Origin: Geobacteraceae bacterium
GTDB taxonomy: Bacteria > Desulfobacterota > Desulfuromonadia > Geobacterales > Pseudopelobacteraceae
Direction of reading: 5' to 3'
NCBI GenBank assembly: GCA_025355325.1
Contig: JANXZX010000232.1
Span: 1 to 50,011, forward strand
Length of the DNA stretch: 50,011 bases
This document shows positions 7,943 through 13,655 of this stretch, in pieces (positions within the stretch are counted from its first letter, which is position 1; the number at the start of each line of letters is the position of its first letter). Under the pieces are notes generated by a model, which was given only the letters and a program-made list of their open reading frames with translations, made no database searches and was not told where the DNA came from. A program made the position numbers and the translations under genes.

Positions 7943-8713
7943 CTACTTATCAAAAACTTTATGTGACTCATAAATAATCGCTAAACGTAACATCAGACCA
8001 ACTATCCCCTGAGTTCCTGCTAAATTATATATTGCATTTTCTACTCTATTATCTCTTGTTTCTTCTGCTGTTGCCGTAGTTGTGGTTGTGGTAGTAGGGA
8101 TATTTGTAACTGGTATCCCACCCGGGTCATCATAATCATAATCATAGTCATCAGGATTAAATATTGGTCGTTGATATGGACCAGGAAAGGGATATCTTGC
8201 TGAATCTAATCCATTTAAAGTAAGAGTATTATTCCACTTTTCCGCTGTATTAATGATTCCTTGTTCATACTGTAATATATTTTCCAAATACGTCGCCATT
8301 ATTTTATCGGCATGTTCCATTTTCAAAAGCAAAGTTTTCATCTTTTTTTCAGTTGCAGCAGTTTTCTTACAGGCATGAAAGAGGGCCTGGTATTTATCGT
8401 AACACCTCTTATATTTGTCAGACCATTTCTTCAATTCATCCTCAAACACATGCCCACTCGGATCGGTATACCTGAGCGGGTTGTTGACCACATAACTGTA
8501 CGATGCCAACGCCTGTGGGTTATACGCATCCGGAATGACTGAATCGGGTGATATGAAGCGGCCCAGCGACGGATCGTAATAGCGGGCCCAGGCATGGGTC
8601 GTCATAGCCGAAAAGGCCAGGACAAGGGCAATGAGCAGGAAACAGCACTGTAGCTTTGGAAAATAATCTTCAGGACGGCGTTTGGGTGGTGGCAGGATAT
8701 TCCGGGAGATCAT
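7943..8713 (-). CDS. Mini-RHS cassette 1: signal peptide, RHS tip motif, variable C-terminal domain
   Basis: 256 residues with AAGGAG before the ATG. Residues 1-44 form a long basic n-region, a hydrophobic core (CCFLLIALVLAFSA) and an AWA cleavage site. The mature protein would start at RYYDPSLGRFISPD, the closing motif of the RHS/YD-repeat core, and the conserved part ends at YTDPSGH (residue 87). The rest is unlike known domains by eye: a Lys-rich helical region with two Cys (about 88-150), an Asp/Tyr patch (DDYDYDYDD), a run of Thr near 205-215, and a hydrophobic C-terminal helix. Standard RHS proteins have many YD repeats before this motif; here there are none. No immunity gene is visible next to it. 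Function unknown; a secreted or surface protein is inferred. Confidence 0.75.
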   Translation of the reverse strand: MISRNILPPPKRRPEDYFPKLQCCFLLIALVLAFSAMTTHAWARYYDPSLGRFISPDSVIPDAYNPQALASYSYVVNNPLRYTDPSGHVFEDELKKWSDKYKRCYDKYQALFHACKKTAATEKKMKTLLLKMEHADKIMATYLENILQYEQGIINTAEKWNNTLTLNGLDSARYPFPGPYQRPIFNPDDYDYDYDDPGGIPVTNIPTTTTTTTATAEETRDNRVENAIYNLAGTQGIVGLMLRLAIIYESHKVFDK

Positions 8714-8734
8714 GGTCGGTTCTCCTTGTGCAAA
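8451..8734 (-). repeat. Conserved cassette 5' block, copy 1
   Basis: A 284-bp block covering the ribosome-binding site and the first 87 codons of cassette 1. It aligns without gaps to 9504-9787 and 11166-11449; in each copy the ATG is 262 bp from the other end. Sequence similarity stops abruptly just after the DPSGH codons. Confidence 0.85.
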
Positions 8735-8755
8735 TGTGGTTTAGTTGCCAGCTTG

Positions 8756-8866
8756 ATGCGTGATTACGGTAGTGAAGATGTTGATAGTTTACTGTTTATT
8801 CATACCTGTGCATCGCCTGAGGATGTCCGGGATTTTGCCACGCTGGAGTCGTTGTTTCTGTCGTAG
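8756..8866 (+). pseudogene. Possible gene remnant between cassettes 1 and 2
   Basis: An open stretch of 36 codons ending in TAG, with residues such as GSEDVDSLLFIHTCASPEDV. The frame is also open back to about 8726, into the conserved cassette leader. The composition is acidic and protein-like and GC is higher than in the flanks, but there is no ribosome-binding site. It may be the 3' end of a gene cut off by the cassette insertion. The family was not recognised. Confidence 0.25.
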
Positions 8867-8902
8867 TTGCTGCCGGGTGATTAGTAAGGCAGGATTATAA
8901 AA

Positions 8903-9766
8903 CTATCTACATCCACCGCCATGCATAAGTTGATTCGTAGCAAAGAATATTGCTATCTGTAGAGCAAATTCTGCAAGTAGTGCCGTAGGATCAGGAGCAA
9001 TATATTGCACCGGTATTTGCTGATTATTCATAGCTCCTAAATCCTGATGAAGCAAAGCCGTAAACTCCAACTGATCCGCATACGTTAAAGTCGGCGTAGC
9101 CGTAGTAGTTGTTGTAGTCGCCCCATTGGGTATATTTGGACGAATAGTGAGAAAATTTGCCATTAAACTTGGATTGTCTGATAATTTGCTTATGCCAGAA
9201 GATCGCATCTCTTTAAGGTTGTTATTGACAATAATTTCACCATCAAGACGGTTAAACCCTTTTATTATACCATTTAAATCTGTCTCATGGTTAATCGGAA
9301 ATGGTATGTCTTCTTTAAATGCTGTAGCATATCTGCTAGTCATAGAACTACATGATTTATTTAGATATGTTAAAATTCTAACTATACGCACTGCATTCAA
9401 ATTCCAATAAAGATAATCAATATTTAATCCGGGAATATAACCATTTGTGAGCGCTTTTTCTAATTCACAATATGCCCTACATAAAGCTATGTCATACGGC
9501 CCATGCCCGCTCGGGTCCGTATACCTGAGCGGATTGTTGCCAACATAGCTGTAAGAGGCCAGAGCCTGCGGATTATACGCATCCGGAATGACGGAATCTG
9601 GCGATATGAAGCGACCCAGTGCCGGACCGTAATAGCGGGCCCAGGCGCTGGTCGTCACTGCCGAAAAGGCCAGGACAAGGGCAATGAACAGGAAACAGCA
9701 GCGTAGCTTTGGAAAGACATCTTCAGGACGGCGTTTGGGCGGGGGCAGGTTGTTCCGGGAGATCAT
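8903..9766 (-). CDS. Mini-RHS cassette 2: signal peptide, RHS tip motif, variable C-terminal domain
   Basis: 287 residues with AAGGAGAA before the ATG. The first 87 residues are nearly the same as in cassette 1: basic n-region, hydrophobic core, cleavage after SAWA, RYYGPALGRFISPD and NNPLRYTDPSGH. The remaining 200 residues share no obvious similarity with cassettes 1 or 3. They include a region with four Cys (about 95-140), a Thr run (TTTTTT) and a hydrophobic segment near the C-terminus (EFALQIAIFF) followed by a Gly/Cys/Arg end. The 5' third is moderately GC-rich and the 3' part is strongly AT-rich, which suggests different origins. A secreted protein of unknown function; no partner gene is seen. 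Confidence 0.75.
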   Translation of the reverse strand: MISRNNLPPPKRRPEDVFPKLRCCFLFIALVLAFSAVTTSAWARYYGPALGRFISPDSVIPDAYNPQALASYSYVGNNPLRYTDPSGHGPYDIALCRAYCELEKALTNGYIPGLNIDYLYWNLNAVRIVRILTYLNKSCSSMTSRYATAFKEDIPFPINHETDLNGIIKGFNRLDGEIIVNNNLKEMRSSGISKLSDNPSLMANFLTIRPNIPNGATTTTTTATPTLTYADQLEFTALLHQDLGAMNNQQIPVQYIAPDPTALLAEFALQIAIFFATNQLMHGGGCR

Positions 9767-9787
9767 GGGTGGTTCTCCTTTTGTAAA
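9504..9787 (-). repeat. Conserved cassette 5' block, copy 2
   Basis: Same block as 8451-8734 and of the same length, closest to copy 1. It runs from the ribosome-binding site to the DPSGH codons of cassette 2. Confidence 0.85.
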
Positions 9788-9821
9788 TTGTGGTAGACGG
9801 TGTTTTTGTTATTACGGAGGC

Positions 9822-9912
9822 AATTAAACATGTCAATCGTAGGGGCGCACTGCTGTGCGCCCGATCCTGGCGTATGCAATACGCCCCTACAGTTTGGTTG
9901 TTGTGTTTAATT
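9822..9912. repeat. Nested palindromic repeat element
   Basis: The outer arms AATTAAACA (9822-9830) and TGTTTAATT (9904-9912) enclose a core bounded by GTAGGGGCG (9839-9847) and CGCCCCTAC (9882-9890). Inside are two hairpins: GCGCAC/GTGCGC (9845-9860) and GGCGTAT/ATACGCC (9869-9885). The structure resembles dispersed non-coding palindromes or miniature elements. Only this copy is in the window. Confidence 0.55.
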
Positions 9913-10021
9913 ACTGTCCAATTAACCAGGGGCAGGCAGACTTTTTAATTTTCAAAGCTGCCTGCCCCGTTATCTGCTTCAGATGATTCTGTTATGGACG
10001 AAGAGCTGACACTTCATATCT

Positions 10022-10108
10022 TCACTCTCTACGTCCACACAACAAGGTGAATGCACCACTTGGATCCCTACGTGGGATTCTCAAATGCATAAAGCTCATG
10101 GTTTTCAT
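10022..10108 (-). CDS. Possible 28-residue small ORF with strong ribosome-binding site
   Basis: The ATG is preceded at 7 bp by GGAGG, the best ribosome-binding site in this spacer. The peptide has a basic middle (HLRIPRRDPSG) and one Cys. It lies 77 bp downstream of the 43-bp GTATAC block and upstream of cassette 2 in the same direction. It could be a leader peptide, a small protein or the start of a lost cassette. No family was recognised. Confidence 0.3.
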   Translation of the reverse strand: MKTMSFMHLRIPRRDPSGAFTLLCGRRE

Positions 10109-10184
10109 TTTCTCTCCTCCGCTGTTATTTGGCTGGTGGCAGGTTGTACCGGTTGATCAAGCCTGAATCGACACATGAAACAGA

Positions 10185-10227
10185 GTATACAAGCTATTGT
10201 TAATTGTAAAGTACATATTATATACAA
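10185..10227 (-). promoter_or_regulatory. 43-bp GTATAC block, copy A
   Basis: Shares 33 of 43 positions, without gaps, with 11568-11610. Both have GTATACA at one end, TATACAA at the other and TAATTGTAAAG in the middle. Read on the minus strand it gives TTTACA, 15 bp, then TATACT, a plausible though tightly spaced promoter aimed at the small ORF and cassettes 2 and 1. It could also be an operator for a shared regulator. Confidence 0.45.
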
Positions 10228-10410
10228 CCTATATTGCAAGGTCTCTGTTTTGTTTAAAAAATATATATACATATTATATTATGTATATCAGTATTTTACT
10301 GCAACAGTAACGCCATATTTAAATCTATATCAAACCGGGCCTGCCTTTGATTAATTAGTATTTTATTATTATAGCAATATATTGTATCTATAGAACTACA
10401 TACACTAATA

Positions 10411-10500
10411 TCTACACGGATCAAAGACAATATCAAGGTGGCGAGGATCGAGGCGGGGGTAAAGAGACTGAAGGAGATGGCTGGGGTGAGTCGTTGGTGA
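10411..10500 (+). pseudogene. Possible 3' gene remnant
   Basis: An open, GC-rich end of a reading frame (RIKDNIKVARIEAGVKRLKE..., stop TGA at 10498-10500) directly after AT-rich DNA and without a start codon. The amphipathic Lys/Arg/Glu pattern reads as a real C-terminal helix. It is immediately followed by the arm of an inverted repeat (10500-10510 with 10541-10551). Family not identified. Confidence 0.25.
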
Positions 10501-10551
10501 CGTTGTTGATTAGTTGATTAACTCGGCACTTAGTTGACAAATCAACAACGT
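10500..10551. repeat. Inverted repeat ACGTTGTTGAT / ATCAACAACGT
   Basis: Perfect 11-bp arms at 10500-10510 and 10541-10551 with a 30-nt loop. It sits between a gene remnant and the end of cassette 3, with no T-tract, so it is unlikely to be a terminator. It may mark the end of a mobile element. Confidence 0.45.
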
Positions 10552-10603
10552 TACCTCAGAGACCCACTCTAAAATTCAATTCCAAAGAAATACTTTAAAG
10601 CGA

Positions 10604-11428
10604 TCACCTACGCTGGTGGTGACAATTCGGAACTTGGCGCACTGCCCAGTGAATCAAGATTGGGGTAAATGTATTGATACCAAAATTTGTAACTCTATTT
10701 CTTAAGCCATCAGCCTGTGTAGTAGTAGCCGCTGTGGTTGTAGCAGTTGGAAGAGGCGGAAAAACCGTAGGAGCCGCAATAGTTGCAGCTGGTGCTGCCG
10801 TTGTTGTTGCAGTTGGAAGAGGCGGAAAAACTGTAGGAGCCGCAATAGTTACTGCCGGTGCTGCCGTTGTTGTTGCAGCCATTAATTGTCCATTACCAGG
10901 AATATGCTCTTCGTCATGCACGTAATAGAAATGCGCCAAATCCTGCTCGTTAATATTATTTTGTCCATTTTCCAAGAGACGATTTGCGTCGATGAAATAT
11001 TGCAAATTATTATGTGCATTATACATATTTCTTTCAGCCACAAATAATGCATTTTCACTTATAATATCACAAAATCTAATATCTATTTTTGCACTTACTC
11101 TACAATAAGCTCTTTCAGCCATATTATATTTTTTTCTCCACATTTCAATTTCTTTCTCAAACATATGCCCACTCGGATCAGAATAATTAAGGGGGCTGTT
11201 CACGACATAGCTGTAAGATGCCATCGCCTGCGGATTATATACATCCGGAATGACGGAATCGGGTGAAATGAAGCGTCCCAACGCCGGATCGTAATAGCGG
11301 GCCCAGGCATGGGTCGTCATACCCGAAAAGGCCAGGATAAGGACAATGAGCAGAAAACAGTATTTTGTTTTTAACGAGATAAATAAAATACTTTTTTTGG
11401 TGGGAGGCTGGTTGTTGTTGGAGATCAT
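10604..11428 (-). CDS. Mini-RHS cassette 3: signal peptide, RHS tip motif, repeat-bearing C-terminal domain
   Basis: 274 residues with AAGGAG before the ATG. The same layout as cassettes 1 and 2: hydrophobic core (CCFLLI-like), THAWA cleavage site, RYYDPALGRFISPD and YSDPSGH at residue 87. Residues 10-25 differ from the other two. The region after DPSGH begins MFEKEIEMWRKKY, which matches VFEDELKKWSDKY of cassette 1, so these two tips are related. A Thr/Ala/Pro-rich linker follows with two tandem 22-residue repeats (APTVFPPLPTATTTAAP core). The end (LRNRVTNFGIN...WAVRQ) again resembles the end of cassette 1. Function unknown. Confidence 0.75.
   Translation of the reverse strand: MISNNNQPPTKKSILFISLKTKYCFLLIVLILAFSGMTTHAWARYYDPALGRFISPDSVIPDVYNPQAMASYSYVVNSPLNYSDPSGHMFEKEIEMWRKKYNMAERAYCRVSAKIDIRFCDIISENALFVAERNMYNAHNNLQYFIDANRLLENGQNNINEQDLAHFYYVHDEEHIPGNGQLMAATTTAAPAVTIAAPTVFPPLPTATTTAAPAATIAAPTVFPPLPTATTTAATTTQADGLRNRVTNFGINTFTPILIHWAVRQVPNCHHQRR
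10743..10874 (-). repeat. Two tandem 66-bp repeats in cassette 3
   Basis: Units 10743-10808 and 10809-10874 differ at only a few positions and encode two 22-residue Thr/Ala/Pro-rich units; a partial third begins at 10875. The length is a multiple of three, so copy number can change without breaking the frame. Confidence 0.9.
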
Positions 11429-11449: not shown

Positions 11450-11794
11450 TGGGATGGGTGGTTCTTCTTAGTTATCAGGCTATCATTCCGAACATAAAGA
11501 CTTTTTTTAAGAAGCTGATCTTCTTTAAAAACGGTGATATTATAATGTAATAATTTTAAAGCATATCGTATACATGTGTATATTAATTGTAAAGAACAAA
11601 TCGTATACAATATATTCTGTAAAGTATTATTAAACTAAACTTTATTATCTTGCACAACATTCTTCCGTCATGTTCAAAATGCACCGCTTATTAAACATGT
11701 CGTTTCATAGGATTACCTACAGATTTAAATTGCCCATTCCGGGCATTATCTGTATCTTTGGCAACTGAATTAATGATCATATCCAGAGGGTGCC
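11429..11794. other. Divergent intergenic region, cassette 3 / OMP gene
   Basis: 366 bp between the divergent starts of cassette 3 (-) and the beta-barrel gene (+). It is AT-rich and holds copy B of the 43-bp GTATAC block (11568-11610). No gene is seen. Confidence 0.7.
11568..11610 (-). promoter_or_regulatory. 43-bp GTATAC block, copy B
   Basis: 33 of 43 positions match 10185-10227. It lies 140-182 bp upstream of the cassette 3 start. Minus-strand TTTACA, 15 bp, then TATACG could serve as a promoter. The conserved ends suggest protein binding. Confidence 0.45.
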
Positions 11795-12457
11795 ATGTAC
11801 AAAACAGTTGTGCTTTGTTCGATGCTGACCATGCTTGTTTTCACGTCCTCATCAGCTATTGCTGAAGGAATATTTCCATACGTCGGTATTTACGGCGGTG
11901 TCCCCCTCACGTCGATCAACAAAATATCCGACTCAAGTGGCACGATAAAAACGGAATTTGATCCGGGGTATATGGGTGGACTGGCTGCCGGCGCCATTTT
12001 TGAAACAAACGGTGGCTGGAATATTGAACGAATCCGGGCAGAAGCTGAAGTCGGCTATAGAACAAATAATGTAGTGCGTGGAAAAAACCTGCAGGGTAAA
12101 AACGTAGACTTGAACGGTAAGGTTTCGCTGAAAAATTACATGGTAAATGGCTATCTGGATAATACCAGCATATTATCAACCGGCCACCCGGTGCTTTTGT
12201 TTTTAACCGCCGGCGCCGGTATCGCCACGGCGACCATTGATTCTATCTCGTATAATAATAAAAATATCATATCGTCATCTTATGCCACCCAATTTGCCTA
12301 CCAGGGCGGGATTGGTATCGGATACGAACTCACCAGGAACATTACTGTGGACGCTGCCTATAAATATATGGCCACCACCGCATTTGAATTTGGGAATATA
12401 AAAGCGGAGTATGGCTGTCACAGTATTCAATTTGGAGCTCAATATATATTCAGGTAA
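11795..12457 (+). CDS. Outer-membrane beta-barrel protein
   Basis: 220 residues starting at the ATG after AGAGGG. Signal peptide about 1-23 (cleavage after SSAIA). The mature part has alternating hydrophobic strands typical of an 8-stranded OmpW/OmpA/porin-like barrel: YVGIYGGVPL, GYMGGLAAGAIF, AEAEVGYRTN, LLFLTAGAGIAT, FAYQGGIGIGYEL, NITVDAAYKYM and a last strand IQFGAQYIF. The final strand ends in F followed by R instead of a terminal aromatic. The ligand is unknown. It is divergent from mini-RHS cassette 3 and followed by a terminator, so it forms a single-gene unit. Confidence 0.8.
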   Translation: MYKTVVLCSMLTMLVFTSSSAIAEGIFPYVGIYGGVPLTSINKISDSSGTIKTEFDPGYMGGLAAGAIFETNGGWNIERIRAEAEVGYRTNNVVRGKNLQGKNVDLNGKVSLKNYMVNGYLDNTSILSTGHPVLLFLTAGAGIATATIDSISYNNKNIISSSYATQFAYQGGIGIGYELTRNITVDAAYKYMATTAFEFGNIKAEYGCHSIQFGAQYIFR

Positions 12458-12524: not shown

Positions 12525-12641
12525 TGTAAATTAATACATTTGCTTGATACAAGTAGACGCACGCTCTGCTATGATATATTAAAGACATGGTTGCGGTAGC
12601 CGTATTTGCGGGTAAGTACTCCACACTCACAAGGAGTTGAA

Positions 12642-13655
12642 ATGGAATCTCTCACTCAGTTCAAGGCACTGGTAGTAGATAAGACCACTGACAAGCAGCT
12701 TTTGCGTAGTATCCGGGAGCGAAGTGTTGACGATCTGCCACCAGGGGATCTGCTGGTGAGGGTGCACTACTCATCTCTCAATTTCAAGGATGCCCTGTCG
12801 GCGACCGGGCACCCCGGCGTGACACGTCAATTCCCGCACACTCCCGGCATCGATGCCGCCGGCGAGGTGGTCACTTGCGAGAACGGCAGCTTTGTCCAAG
12901 GAGAAAAAGTCATCGTTACCGGATACGATTTAGGCATGGAGACCGACGGCGGCTGGGGAGAATATATCCGCATCTCTTCTGACTGGGCAGTAAGGCTTCC
13001 GGAGGGTCTCACCTTGCAGGAAAGTATGACCATCGGAACCGCCGGTTTTACAGCGGCTTTGTCAGTGCTGAAGCTGGAACAGGCCGGGGTTAAACCGTCA
13101 GACGGCGATATTCTGGTGACCGGGGCCACCGGTGGAGTCGGCAGCATCGCCGTATCCATCCTGAGCCAGGCCGGATACCGGGTTGTTGCCGCCACCGGCA
13201 AGAGCTGCGACGAGACTTTCCTGCAAAACCTCGGAGCAACGGAGGTTATCACACGCGAAGATGTTACTGCGGGATCTGATCGCCCAATGATGAAAGAGCG
13301 CTGGGCCGGTGTTGTGGATGTAGTCGGGGGCGAAACCCTGGCCGCAGCGATCAAGTCAACCCGCTATGGGGGCGCAGTTACCTGCTGCGGTCTGGTCGGA
13401 TCAACCGACCTTGTCATGAATGTCTTTCCCTTCATTCTGCGCGGAGTAAGCCTGATCGGTATTGATTCGGTCAACTGTCCGACAGACACCCGCCGGAACG
13501 TCTGGAAAAGGCTTGCCGGTGAGTGGCGACCGAAGCATTTGTCAGAGCTGGTTACCGAAGTCCCCCTGGAAGGACTGGAAGAGAAGATTCAGTCTATCCT
13601 GCACGGTGAAATCCGGGGCCGAGTCATCGTGAAACTACCTGCTGCATTTTTATAG
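12642..13655 (+). CDS. acuI: YhdH/AcuI-family NADPH-dependent acrylyl-CoA reductase / quinone oxidoreductase
   Basis: 337 residues from the ATG after AAGGAG (12631-12636). It belongs to the medium-chain dehydrogenase/reductase superfamily without zinc ligands. The N-terminal GroES-like domain has YSSLNFKDALSATGHPG, and the cofactor domain has TGATGGVGSIAVSILSQAGY. The FKDAL and PGIDAAGEV segments are typical of the YhdH/AcuI family, which reduces acrylyl-CoA to propionyl-CoA with NADPH. The substrate here is inferred from the family. It begins a same-strand run with an AEC transporter, a QueG-like protein and an Old Yellow Enzyme, which hints at metabolism of unsaturated or electrophilic carbonyls. 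Confidence 0.85.
   Translation: MESLTQFKALVVDKTTDKQLLRSIRERSVDDLPPGDLLVRVHYSSLNFKDALSATGHPGVTRQFPHTPGIDAAGEVVTCENGSFVQGEKVIVTGYDLGMETDGGWGEYIRISSDWAVRLPEGLTLQESMTIGTAGFTAALSVLKLEQAGVKPSDGDILVTGATGGVGSIAVSILSQAGYRVVAATGKSCDETFLQNLGATEVITREDVTAGSDRPMMKERWAGVVDVVGGETLAAAIKSTRYGGAVTCCGLVGSTDLVMNVFPFILRGVSLIGIDSVNCPTDTRRNVWKRLAGEWRPKHLSELVTEVPLEGLEEKIQSILHGEIRGRVIVKLPAAFL

What the first reader, a model, noticed from the sequence alone, without database searches (positions are those of the whole stretch)
7943..11428. Array of three secreted mini-RHS cassettes with swapped C-termini
Three same-strand genes share 87 residues: a Sec signal peptide fused directly to the final RHS core motif (RYYDPxLGRFISPD...DPSGH), with no YD repeats before it. 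After DPSGH each has its own C-terminal region. Known RHS proteins put this motif at the end of a very long cage and orphan tips usually lack their own export signal. Here each tip has its own ribosome-binding site, signal peptide and AWA cleavage site placed just before the motif. This may be a compact, independently exported variable-protein family not described as a system.
Basis: partly seen in the sequence, partly recalled or inferred. Interest (0 to 1): 0.75.

Follow-up and report, generated by a model that had tools for sequence, protein, structure and literature searches.

The report
Cage-less secreted RHS-tip protein trio
Three neighbouring bacterial genes make short, probably exported proteins that keep only the last, self-cleaving piece of a large toxin-packaging protein and carry different tails; they look like an extreme form of a known class of secreted, mix-and-match toxins, but without the usual protector genes.

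Summary
Three minus-strand ORFs (7943-8713, 8903-9766, 10604-11428) share a ribosome-binding site, a Sec-type signal peptide ending AWA and, directly after it, the 45-residue RHS core tip, without YD repeats. They are genuine coding genes: the mature tip is under strong purifying selection, and no C-terminal region stays open in 20,000 shuffles. A fourth start is a relic. The interpretation needs correcting. The C-termini are not cleanly swapped: genes 1 and 3 share their first ~25 residues after the tip, and all three have a Thr/Ala-rich run near the C-terminus (0 of 38 other window ORFs). Short self-exported RHS proteins are not unique: 12 genes in 9 of 141 genomes of the order, one in this genome, have signal peptide + one YD hairpin + tip + variable C-terminus, and 10 of 12 have a close downstream immunity-like ORF (e.g. 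ribonuclease/barstar). The trio is the only case found with the signal peptide directly on the tip; 0 of 3 has an immunity ORF. Best reading: a diverging family of Sec-exported proteins derived from a secreted RHS protein, autoprotease residues intact. Export and function are inferred, not shown. New variant of a known kind.

The parts
7943..8713 (-). Gene 1, 256 aa: signal peptide + RHS tip + C-terminal region
8903..9766 (-). Gene 2, 287 aa: signal peptide + RHS tip + C-terminal region
10604..11428 (-). Gene 3, 274 aa: signal peptide + RHS tip + C-terminal region
8585..8713 (-). Gene 1 putative signal peptide (residues 1-43)
   Evidence: hydropathy; AWA read by eye
9638..9766 (-). Gene 2 putative signal peptide (residues 1-43)
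   Evidence: hydropathy; AWA read by eye
11300..11428 (-). Gene 3 putative signal peptide (residues 1-43)
   Evidence: hydropathy; AWA read by eye
8450..8584 (-). Gene 1 RHS tip (residues 44-88) with R44, D57, D84 at the autoprotease positions
9503..9637 (-). Gene 2 RHS tip
11165..11299 (-). Gene 3 RHS tip
7943..8449 (-). Gene 1 C-terminal region, 168 aa; begins VFEDELKKWSDKY, homologous to gene 3
8903..9502 (-). Gene 2 C-terminal region, 199 aa; no clear relative
10604..11164 (-). Gene 3 C-terminal region, 186 aa; begins MFEKEIEMWRKKY
8066..8095 (-). Gene 1 Thr/Ala-rich run
9095..9121 (-). Gene 2 Thr/Ala-rich run
10718..10879 (-). Gene 3 Thr/Ala/Pro-rich stretch with a 66-nt tandem duplication
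   Evidence: (D3)
10128..10161 (-). Relic of a fourth gene start (TTG, then I-N-R-Y-N-L-P-P-A-K-stop)
   Evidence: D2; frame read by eye
10185..10242 (-). Upstream sequence of the relic, 72% like 11568-11625 upstream of gene 3
   Evidence: D4
11568..11625 (-). Upstream copy of that repeat before gene 3
   Evidence: D4

Best explanation
A tandem family of Sec-exported 'cage-less' RHS proteins, so far seen in one species, derived from a secreted RHS protein by loss of all YD sequence. Shown: one 88-residue unit (signal-peptide-like leader fused to the RHS tip) exists in three copies plus a relic start; the tip is conserved by selection; the rest differs strongly, although genes 1 and 3 keep a common start and all three a Thr/Ala-rich run near the C-terminus. 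Inferred: the protein leaves the cytoplasm by Sec and the signal peptide is cut after AWA; the tip, which keeps the RHS autoprotease residues, serves as a leader or a docking and processing piece; the variable C-terminal part is the working part, exposed or released outside the inner membrane in contact with other cells (toxin-like or surface-exposed). The toxin step is the weakest link, because no immunity gene and no known toxin domain is present.
For: Shared unit and tip model match. Mature-tip dN and dS by NG86: 0.030 and 0.888, 0.071 and 0.685, 0.082 and 0.934. Coding C-termini. GC3 0.56-0.65 in the signal-tip unit versus 0.26-0.27 in the three C-termini; AT-rich variable ends are usual in RHS toxins (general knowledge). 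R44/D57/D84 in 3 of 3, and R-(12 residues)-D plus the final D in 12 of 12 hairpin-type mini-RHS genes, matching R2103/D2116/D2140 of a bacterial teneurin-like protein (PMC13018210, passages). The tip aligns, weakly, to the end of the 1152-aa chain 8h8a of a solved Rhs protein (E 0.019 with gene 1, 0.0087 with the three-row profile) and to YenC2 (9c4k E 0.0026 with gene 2; the 690-aa chain 4igl E 0.15-0.42). Architecture-level relatives have toxin and immunity content: NlpC/P60 (own genome), Ntox33, Ribonuclease + Barstar, Imm40. Genes 1/3 C-terminal start: 0 of 100,000 shuffles. Thr/Ala runs in 3 of 3 trio genes, 0 of 38 other window ORFs.
Against: No downstream immunity-like ORF for any of the 3 genes, whereas 10 of 12 hairpin-type mini-RHS genes have one. 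No Pfam domain at threshold in the three proteins (Imm30 to gene 1 at E 0.055, 14 bits, is below its cut-off of 27). The trio's tips are closer to tips of longer RHS proteins (up to 72-74%) than to those of the hairpin-type mini-RHS toxins (38.6-45.6%), so descent from the latter is not supported; likeness to them is in architecture. No credible relative of the C-termini in 97 other genomes. No second genome with the unit, so selection on the C-termini cannot be tested. The tails behind the Thr/Ala run show no significant mutual similarity. Structure models uninformative (mean pLDDT 41.7 and 35.8). Whether the tip can fold or cut without the cage is unknown.
Confidence: 0.5

Rival explanations
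1. Diversifying surface or extracellular proteins without toxin activity: the tip is a leftover leader, and the variable part is an adhesin- or antigen-like exposed domain with a Thr-rich stalk.
For: No immunity gene, Thr/Ala-rich runs, genes 1 and 3 diverging from a common start rather than swapped, cysteine pairs in the mature part (C104/C115 in gene 1, C109/C120 in gene 3), an adjacent outer-membrane barrel gene 11795-12457.
Against: RHS tips elsewhere in the order precede toxin domains with immunity genes; no adhesin domain found.
Confidence: 0.27
2. Decaying remnants of a secreted RHS toxin locus: a truncated gene was duplicated and is being lost.
For: A fourth copy is already a relic; immunity genes are absent; the unit is found in one genome only; neutral drift of the gene 1/2 and 2/3 C-termini cannot be excluded at the high dS estimate (38 and 40 of 100 simulations at or below the observed score).
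Against: Mature-tip dN/dS far below 1 in all three pairs; all three C-terminal ORFs open, 0 of 20,000 shuffles each; RBS kept in all three.
Confidence: 0.14
3. Dissociated ('displaced') tips: silent donor cassettes for recombination onto a full-length rhs gene, as in Enterobacteriaceae.
For: Tandem tip-plus-variable-end units with AT-rich ends.
Against: Displaced tips are described as downstream of core sequences and likely silent for want of a proper start (PMC2935791, passages); here 3 of 3 have RBS, ATG and a signal-peptide-like leader, and the full-length RHS hit of this genome lies on another contig with a tip 43% identical.
Confidence: 0.05
4. In-trans cargo: the tip plugs into the cage of a separate RHS protein exported by the same cell, bringing alternative C-termini.
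For: The tip corresponds to the cage-closing end of solved RHS proteins (weak alignments); the genome has a full-length RHS protein with a signal peptide (C204); a Yersinia entomophaga ABC toxin can package components from distinct loci (PMC11067744, title and abstract start in the listing), though as far as the listing shows those carry an RHS shell.
Against: The C204 protein has its own, distant tip (43% identity).
Confidence: 0.04

Closest known systems
RHS/YD-repeat polymorphic toxins (T6SS Rhs, TcC, WapA, teneurin-like)
   Same: The RHS core tip with conserved R, D and PxxxxDPxG, followed by a variable C-terminal region (168-199 aa here).
   Different: No YD repeats and no cage; a signal peptide sits directly on the tip; H instead of W/L/F after DPxG; no immunity gene.
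Secreted mini-RHS toxins of the same order (signal peptide + one HTDPAGTP/KPFGEE hairpin + tip + C-terminus, about 290 aa; grouped here)
   Same: Short, own signal peptide, RHS tip with the same R/D/D residues, variable C-terminus, in two genomes two genes within about 2 kb.
   Different: They keep one YD hairpin and have a longer tip (38.6-45.6% identical); 3 of 11 scanned carry a toxin-type Pfam domain and one more DUF5675; 10 of 12 have a close downstream immunity-like ORF. The trio has none of these.
MafB toxins of Neisseria (PMC4287609, passages)
   Same: Signal peptide + conserved domain + variable C-terminus, exported in a signal-peptide-dependent way.
   Different: Conserved domain is DUF1020, not RHS; MafI immunity genes present.
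SitA lipoprotein toxins of Myxococcus (PMC5562445, passages)
   Same: Exported polymorphic proteins, several cassettes per genome, with a predicted outer-membrane barrel partner (SitB).
   Different: Lipobox signal, not RHS; SitI immunity present; the barrel gene here is divergent and no linkage was shown.
Displaced rhs tips (PMC2935791, passages)
   Same: Tandem units of RHS 3' core plus different ends.
   Different: Displaced tips lack proper starts and follow core sequences of an rhs gene.

Membership tests
RHS protein family | RHS repeat-associated core motif (TIGR03696) above cut-off | tested here: met
   48.3, 46.5, 46.4 bits against a cut-off of 32.5
RHS protein family | YD repeats forming a cage | tested here: not met
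   no RHS/YD domain; the tip follows the signal peptide directly
RHS protein family | Autoprotease residues (R, D, D) and PxxxxDPxG | tested here: met
   3 of 3; the residue after DPxG is H, not W/L/F; activity not tested
Polymorphic toxin system | Conserved N-terminal part with different C-terminal parts | tested here: inconclusive
   C-termini differ, but genes 1 and 3 are homologous at the start and all share a Thr/Ala run; divergence and exchange not separated
Polymorphic toxin system | Cognate immunity gene directly downstream | tested here: not met
   0 of 3; the downstream gaps of 95, 189 and 837 bp hold no ORF of 60 aa or more
Polymorphic toxin system | Known toxin domain | tested here: not met
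   none in Pfam or NCBIfam; no toxin chain among PDB matches outside the tip
Secreted mini-RHS toxins (hairpin type) | Signal peptide | tested here: inconclusive
   hydropathy and AWA; no predictor or assay
Secreted mini-RHS toxins (hairpin type) | One YD hairpin before the tip | tested here: not met
   absent in the trio, present in 12 of 12 by the pattern used to collect them
Displaced (orphan) rhs tips | No proper translation start; located after an rhs core gene | tested here: not met
MafB | DUF1020 domain | tested here: not met
SitA | Lipoprotein signal (lipobox) and SitI immunity | tested here: not met
   no lipobox at the end of the signal peptide (read by eye); for immunity

The most novel reading that the evidence does not exclude
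The RHS tip works without its cage: a 45-residue autoprotease leader that, after Sec export, cuts itself off and releases a variable C-terminal domain, making a minimal export-and-release module for fast-diverging extracellular proteins.
Probability: 0.12. Interest if true: 0.75.

Novelty: new variant of a known kind. Interest (0 to 1): 0.42.

Why it matters
RHS autocleavage is understood only at the end of a large cage. A natural set of genes that keeps just the tip, under strong selection and with all the autoprotease residues, makes it directly testable whether the tip has a job of its own (folding, cutting, docking, recombination anchor). The comparison also brings out a compact RHS toxin-immunity family (about 290 aa, with its own signal peptide) in this order that should be far easier to handle than full-length RHS proteins.

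Tried and rejected
Displaced silent tips: disfavoured (starts, RBS, signal-peptide-like leaders; no other RHS hit on the contig). Chance ORFs: rejected. Cleanly swapped C-termini: not upheld for genes 1 and 3; for gene 2, exchange and neutral drift could not be told apart at the high dS value. Descent from the hairpin-type mini-RHS toxins: not supported by tip identity. Immunity hidden in the gaps: ORFs of 20 aa or more were listed on both strands (gap plus 60 bp either side), nothing convincing. The outer-membrane barrel gene 11795-12457 as partner: relatives in 22 of 39 genus genomes, the own included; not found upstream of rsmD in any of 29 relatives' loci (up to 1.5 kb; two loci held only about 0.6 and 1.0 kb there), so no linkage shown. 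Signal peptide inherited from a full-length RHS gene: by eye, the N-termini of four full-length relatives (L179, L180, L181, L183) and of the C204 protein do not resemble it; a fifth (L182) had no readable start. Structure prediction: mean pLDDT 41.7 (three-row alignment) and 35.8 (single sequence), so no fold search was run. PDB hits of gene 3 to antibody chains cover its Thr/Ala-rich part and are taken as low-complexity matches. Viral contigs: no relative. Plasmids: 170 records match, in the rows listed over the tip only; none covers 80% of the query.

Paper searches for a short RHS protein with a signal peptide directly on the tip. None of the titles and abstract starts listed shows one, but the lists were capped, the library is partial, and of eight papers opened I saw passages only (PMC3482391, PMC4612132, PMC8765631, PMC13018210, PMC4287609, PMC2935791, PMC8636562, PMC5562445). 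Names used without a call behind them: WapA, and the usual AT-richness of RHS ends.
Full report
OBSERVATION. In reading direction the order is gene 3, gene 2, gene 1, then rsmD and coaD (gene names recalled from the products). Residues 1-88 are 90% and 73% identical to gene 1. At DNA level the repeat is 287 nt, 86% and 79% identical, and includes 22 nt before the ATG with the ribosome-binding site. TIGR03696 (RHS core) matches all three above cut-off, but only with its end; no YD or RHS repeat domain is present. The hydrophobic stretch within residues 21-39 is followed by TT(H/S)AWA and then RYY; cleavage after AWA is my reading, as no signal-peptide predictor was on hand. A fourth start at 10128-10161 (TTG-I-N-R-Y-N-L-P-P-A-K-stop) is a relic, with upstream sequence 72% like that of gene 3.

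ARE THEY GENES? Yes. By NG86, dN and dS over the mature tip are 0.030 and 0.888 (genes 1-2), 0.071 and 0.685 (1-3), 0.082 and 0.934 (2-3); over the whole 88 codons dN is 0.06, 0.19 and 0.22 with dS 0.49-0.59. The C-terminal regions have 35-40% GC, and yet none of 20,000 dinucleotide shuffles of each is free of in-frame stops; GC by codon position differs (p 0.012, 5e-4, 1.7e-5). GC3 is 0.56-0.65 in the signal-tip unit and 0.26-0.27 in the three C-termini, a sharp mosaic.

ARE THE C-TERMINI SWAPPED? Only partly. The first 13 residues after H88 of genes 1 and 3 (VFEDELKKWSDKY / MFEKEIEMWRKKY) score higher than all of 100,000 shuffles; local alignment of the first 30 residues gives 3-8 of 5,000, depending on gap cost. 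Both have two cysteines 11 apart in this part. Gene 2 against gene 3 is weak: 62-105 of 5,000 over the first 30 residues, 282-433 over 45, 887-1,060 over 60; gene 1 against gene 2 shows nothing. All three have a run of Thr/Ala ending 37-63 residues from the C-terminus; among the 41 non-overlapping ORFs of 150 aa or more in the window, 3 of 3 trio genes and 0 of 38 others have such a run (seven or more T/A with at least four T). The tails behind the run are not significantly alike (110-519 of 1,000 shuffles, local). Simulated neutral drift would leave visible DNA similarity at the low dS estimates, but not reliably at the high ones (38, 40 and 2 of 100 simulations at or below the observed score for pairs 1-2, 2-3 and 1-3). 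So common descent with fast divergence is shown for genes 1 and 3; gene 2 may be diverged or exchanged.

HOW SPECIAL IS SIGNAL PEPTIDE PLUS TIP? In the own genome only these three match the whole unit; two other RHS hits lie on other contigs (E<=1). The sets searched overlap and include the own genome: 98 relatives (E<=1e-3), 141 genomes of the order (E<=1e-6), 277 of the class (E<=1e-10) and 395 drawn from the phylum (E<=1e-9). In these, no match outside the own genome starts before query position 39. In genome contigs (80 of 131 confirmed loci kept, found by exact peptide patterns, so favouring close tips), four matches reach further forward (L045, L096, L105, L106), but what precedes them is RHS sequence inside long frames, not a signal peptide. 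Among 155 distinct tip-bearing ORFs in 132 fetched loci, 21 have fewer than 70 residues before the tip; none has a credible signal peptide there (one, L080, passes a crude hydropathy level, but the alignment there starts inside the motif), and 10 were cut by a locus end. Of 27 further phylum loci none shows it; one (L230) is cut 11 residues before the tip.

THE WIDER FAMILY. The searches brought out a better-populated relative in architecture: signal peptide + one YD hairpin (HTDPAGTP ... KPFGE) + tip + variable C-terminus, about 290 aa. There are 12 such genes in 9 of 141 genomes of the order, plus one weaker match of a different make in a tenth (sequences). I scanned 11 of the 12 against Pfam: all have the RHS domain PF03527; three have a toxin-type domain (NlpC/P60 in the own genome's C99 gene, Ntox33, a barnase-type Ribonuclease), one has DUF5675, seven have no C-terminal family. 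In 10 of 12 an ORF of 117-187 aa starts between 19 bp before and 95 bp after the stop; the exceptions are the own-genome gene and L176. I scanned seven of these ten ORFs: Barstar lies behind the ribonuclease, DUF4279 behind Ntox33, Imm40 behind L169; four matched no family. Several of the unmatched ones start with signal-peptide- or membrane-like stretches by eye. Single-hairpin forms with a signal-like start also occur in Dyella (L111) and a betaproteobacterial MAG (L114) (by eye). So short, self-exported RHS toxins are a real kind. The trio resembles them in build, but its tips are nearer to those of longer RHS proteins (up to 72-74%) than to theirs (38.6-45.6%), so a separate loss of the YD part from a longer RHS gene is more likely than descent from the hairpin type.

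WHAT THE TRIO LACKS. None of the three has an immunity-like ORF: the downstream gaps are 95, 189 and 837 bp, and the ORFs of 20 aa or more there are all under 60 aa and without support. No known toxin domain is found. In 98 genomes (own included) the C-termini find nothing credible: best other matches E 0.024 (gene 1), 0.007 (gene 2) and 0.001 (gene 3, whose 38-genome tally is weak matches mostly in its Thr/Ala-rich part, many with stops inside).

MECHANISM. Known RHS proteins cut themselves after PxxxxDPxG(W/L/F) with two aspartates, D1324/D1346 in RhsA (PMC8765631, passages), and a helper arginine, R2103 with D2116/D2140 in a bacterial teneurin-like protein (PMC13018210, passages). The trio keeps R44, D57 (13 later, as in the latter) and D84 in 3 of 3, and the 12 hairpin-type genes keep R, D and the final D too. 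The tip aligns, weakly, to the end of the 1152-aa chain 8h8a (a Rhs-family protein) and of YenC2 (E 0.001-0.42 over the chains). Retention under selection argues that the tip does something. My preferred reading is an exported protein whose tip is leader and processing or docking piece and whose C-terminal part acts outside the inner membrane. Export, cleavage and activity are inferred, not shown. How the protein would cross the outer membrane is unknown; for MafB that step was also unidentified in the 2015 paper (PMC4287609, passages). In a T6SS Rhs protein the cut pieces stay together until delivery (PMC8636562, passages), so cutting alone need not mean release.

SURROUNDINGS. rsmD-coaD is conserved in 29 of 29 relatives' loci examined (30 loci were fetched, one of them the window; 36 of 39 genus genomes, own included, have rsmD), but none of the 29 shows the trio, the barrel gene or the oxidoreductase-like gene 12606-13655 upstream of rsmD (up to 1.5 kb looked at): the array sits in a variable spot.

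VERDICT. Real, coding, selected in its tip, and unusual in the complete absence of YD sequence. It is best filed as a new variant of secreted RHS-type variable proteins, not a new system; membership in the polymorphic toxins fails on immunity and known toxin domain, while 'works like a secreted mini-RHS effector or exposed protein' remains the leading guess at about even odds.

Noticed in passing
L005, L168-L178 (own genome C99 and eight other genomes of the order): Compact RHS toxin family (signal peptide, one YD hairpin, tip, variable end, about 290 aa); 10 of 12 with a close downstream immunity-like ORF, including ribonuclease/barstar and Ntox33/DUF4279 pairs.
   Followed up: partly
window 10022-10242: Relic of a fourth gene start (10128-10161) with its upstream region; next to it a 28-aa ORF MKTMSFMHLRIPRRDPSGAF... 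(10108-10022) with a good ribosome-binding site and an RDPSG string of unknown meaning.
   Followed up: partly
window 9808-9914: Stretch with a hairpin-like GTAGGGGCG...CGCCCCTAC, 94% identical to own-genome C2:95186-95292, perhaps a small mobile repeat.
   Followed up: no
window 11795-12457: Outer-membrane beta-barrel gene (PF13505) divergent from gene 3; relatives in 22 of 39 genus genomes (own included), best 53%. SitA toxins have a predicted barrel partner (PMC5562445, passages), so linkage is worth a look.
   Followed up: partly
L184 2976-7465 (own genome C204): Full-length RHS protein with a signal-peptide-like start (1347 aa), overlapped by a 151-aa ORF with a signal-like start: possible toxin-immunity pair.
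   Followed up: no
L039 (MAG labelled Altiarchaeales archaeon): Several short RHS tip ORFs in a contig binned as archaeal; may be a binning error.
   Followed up: no
window 7943-8449, 8903-9502, 10604-11164: All three C-termini have nearly the same GC3 (0.26-0.27) although their sequences differ, against 0.56-0.65 for the signal-tip unit.
   Followed up: partly
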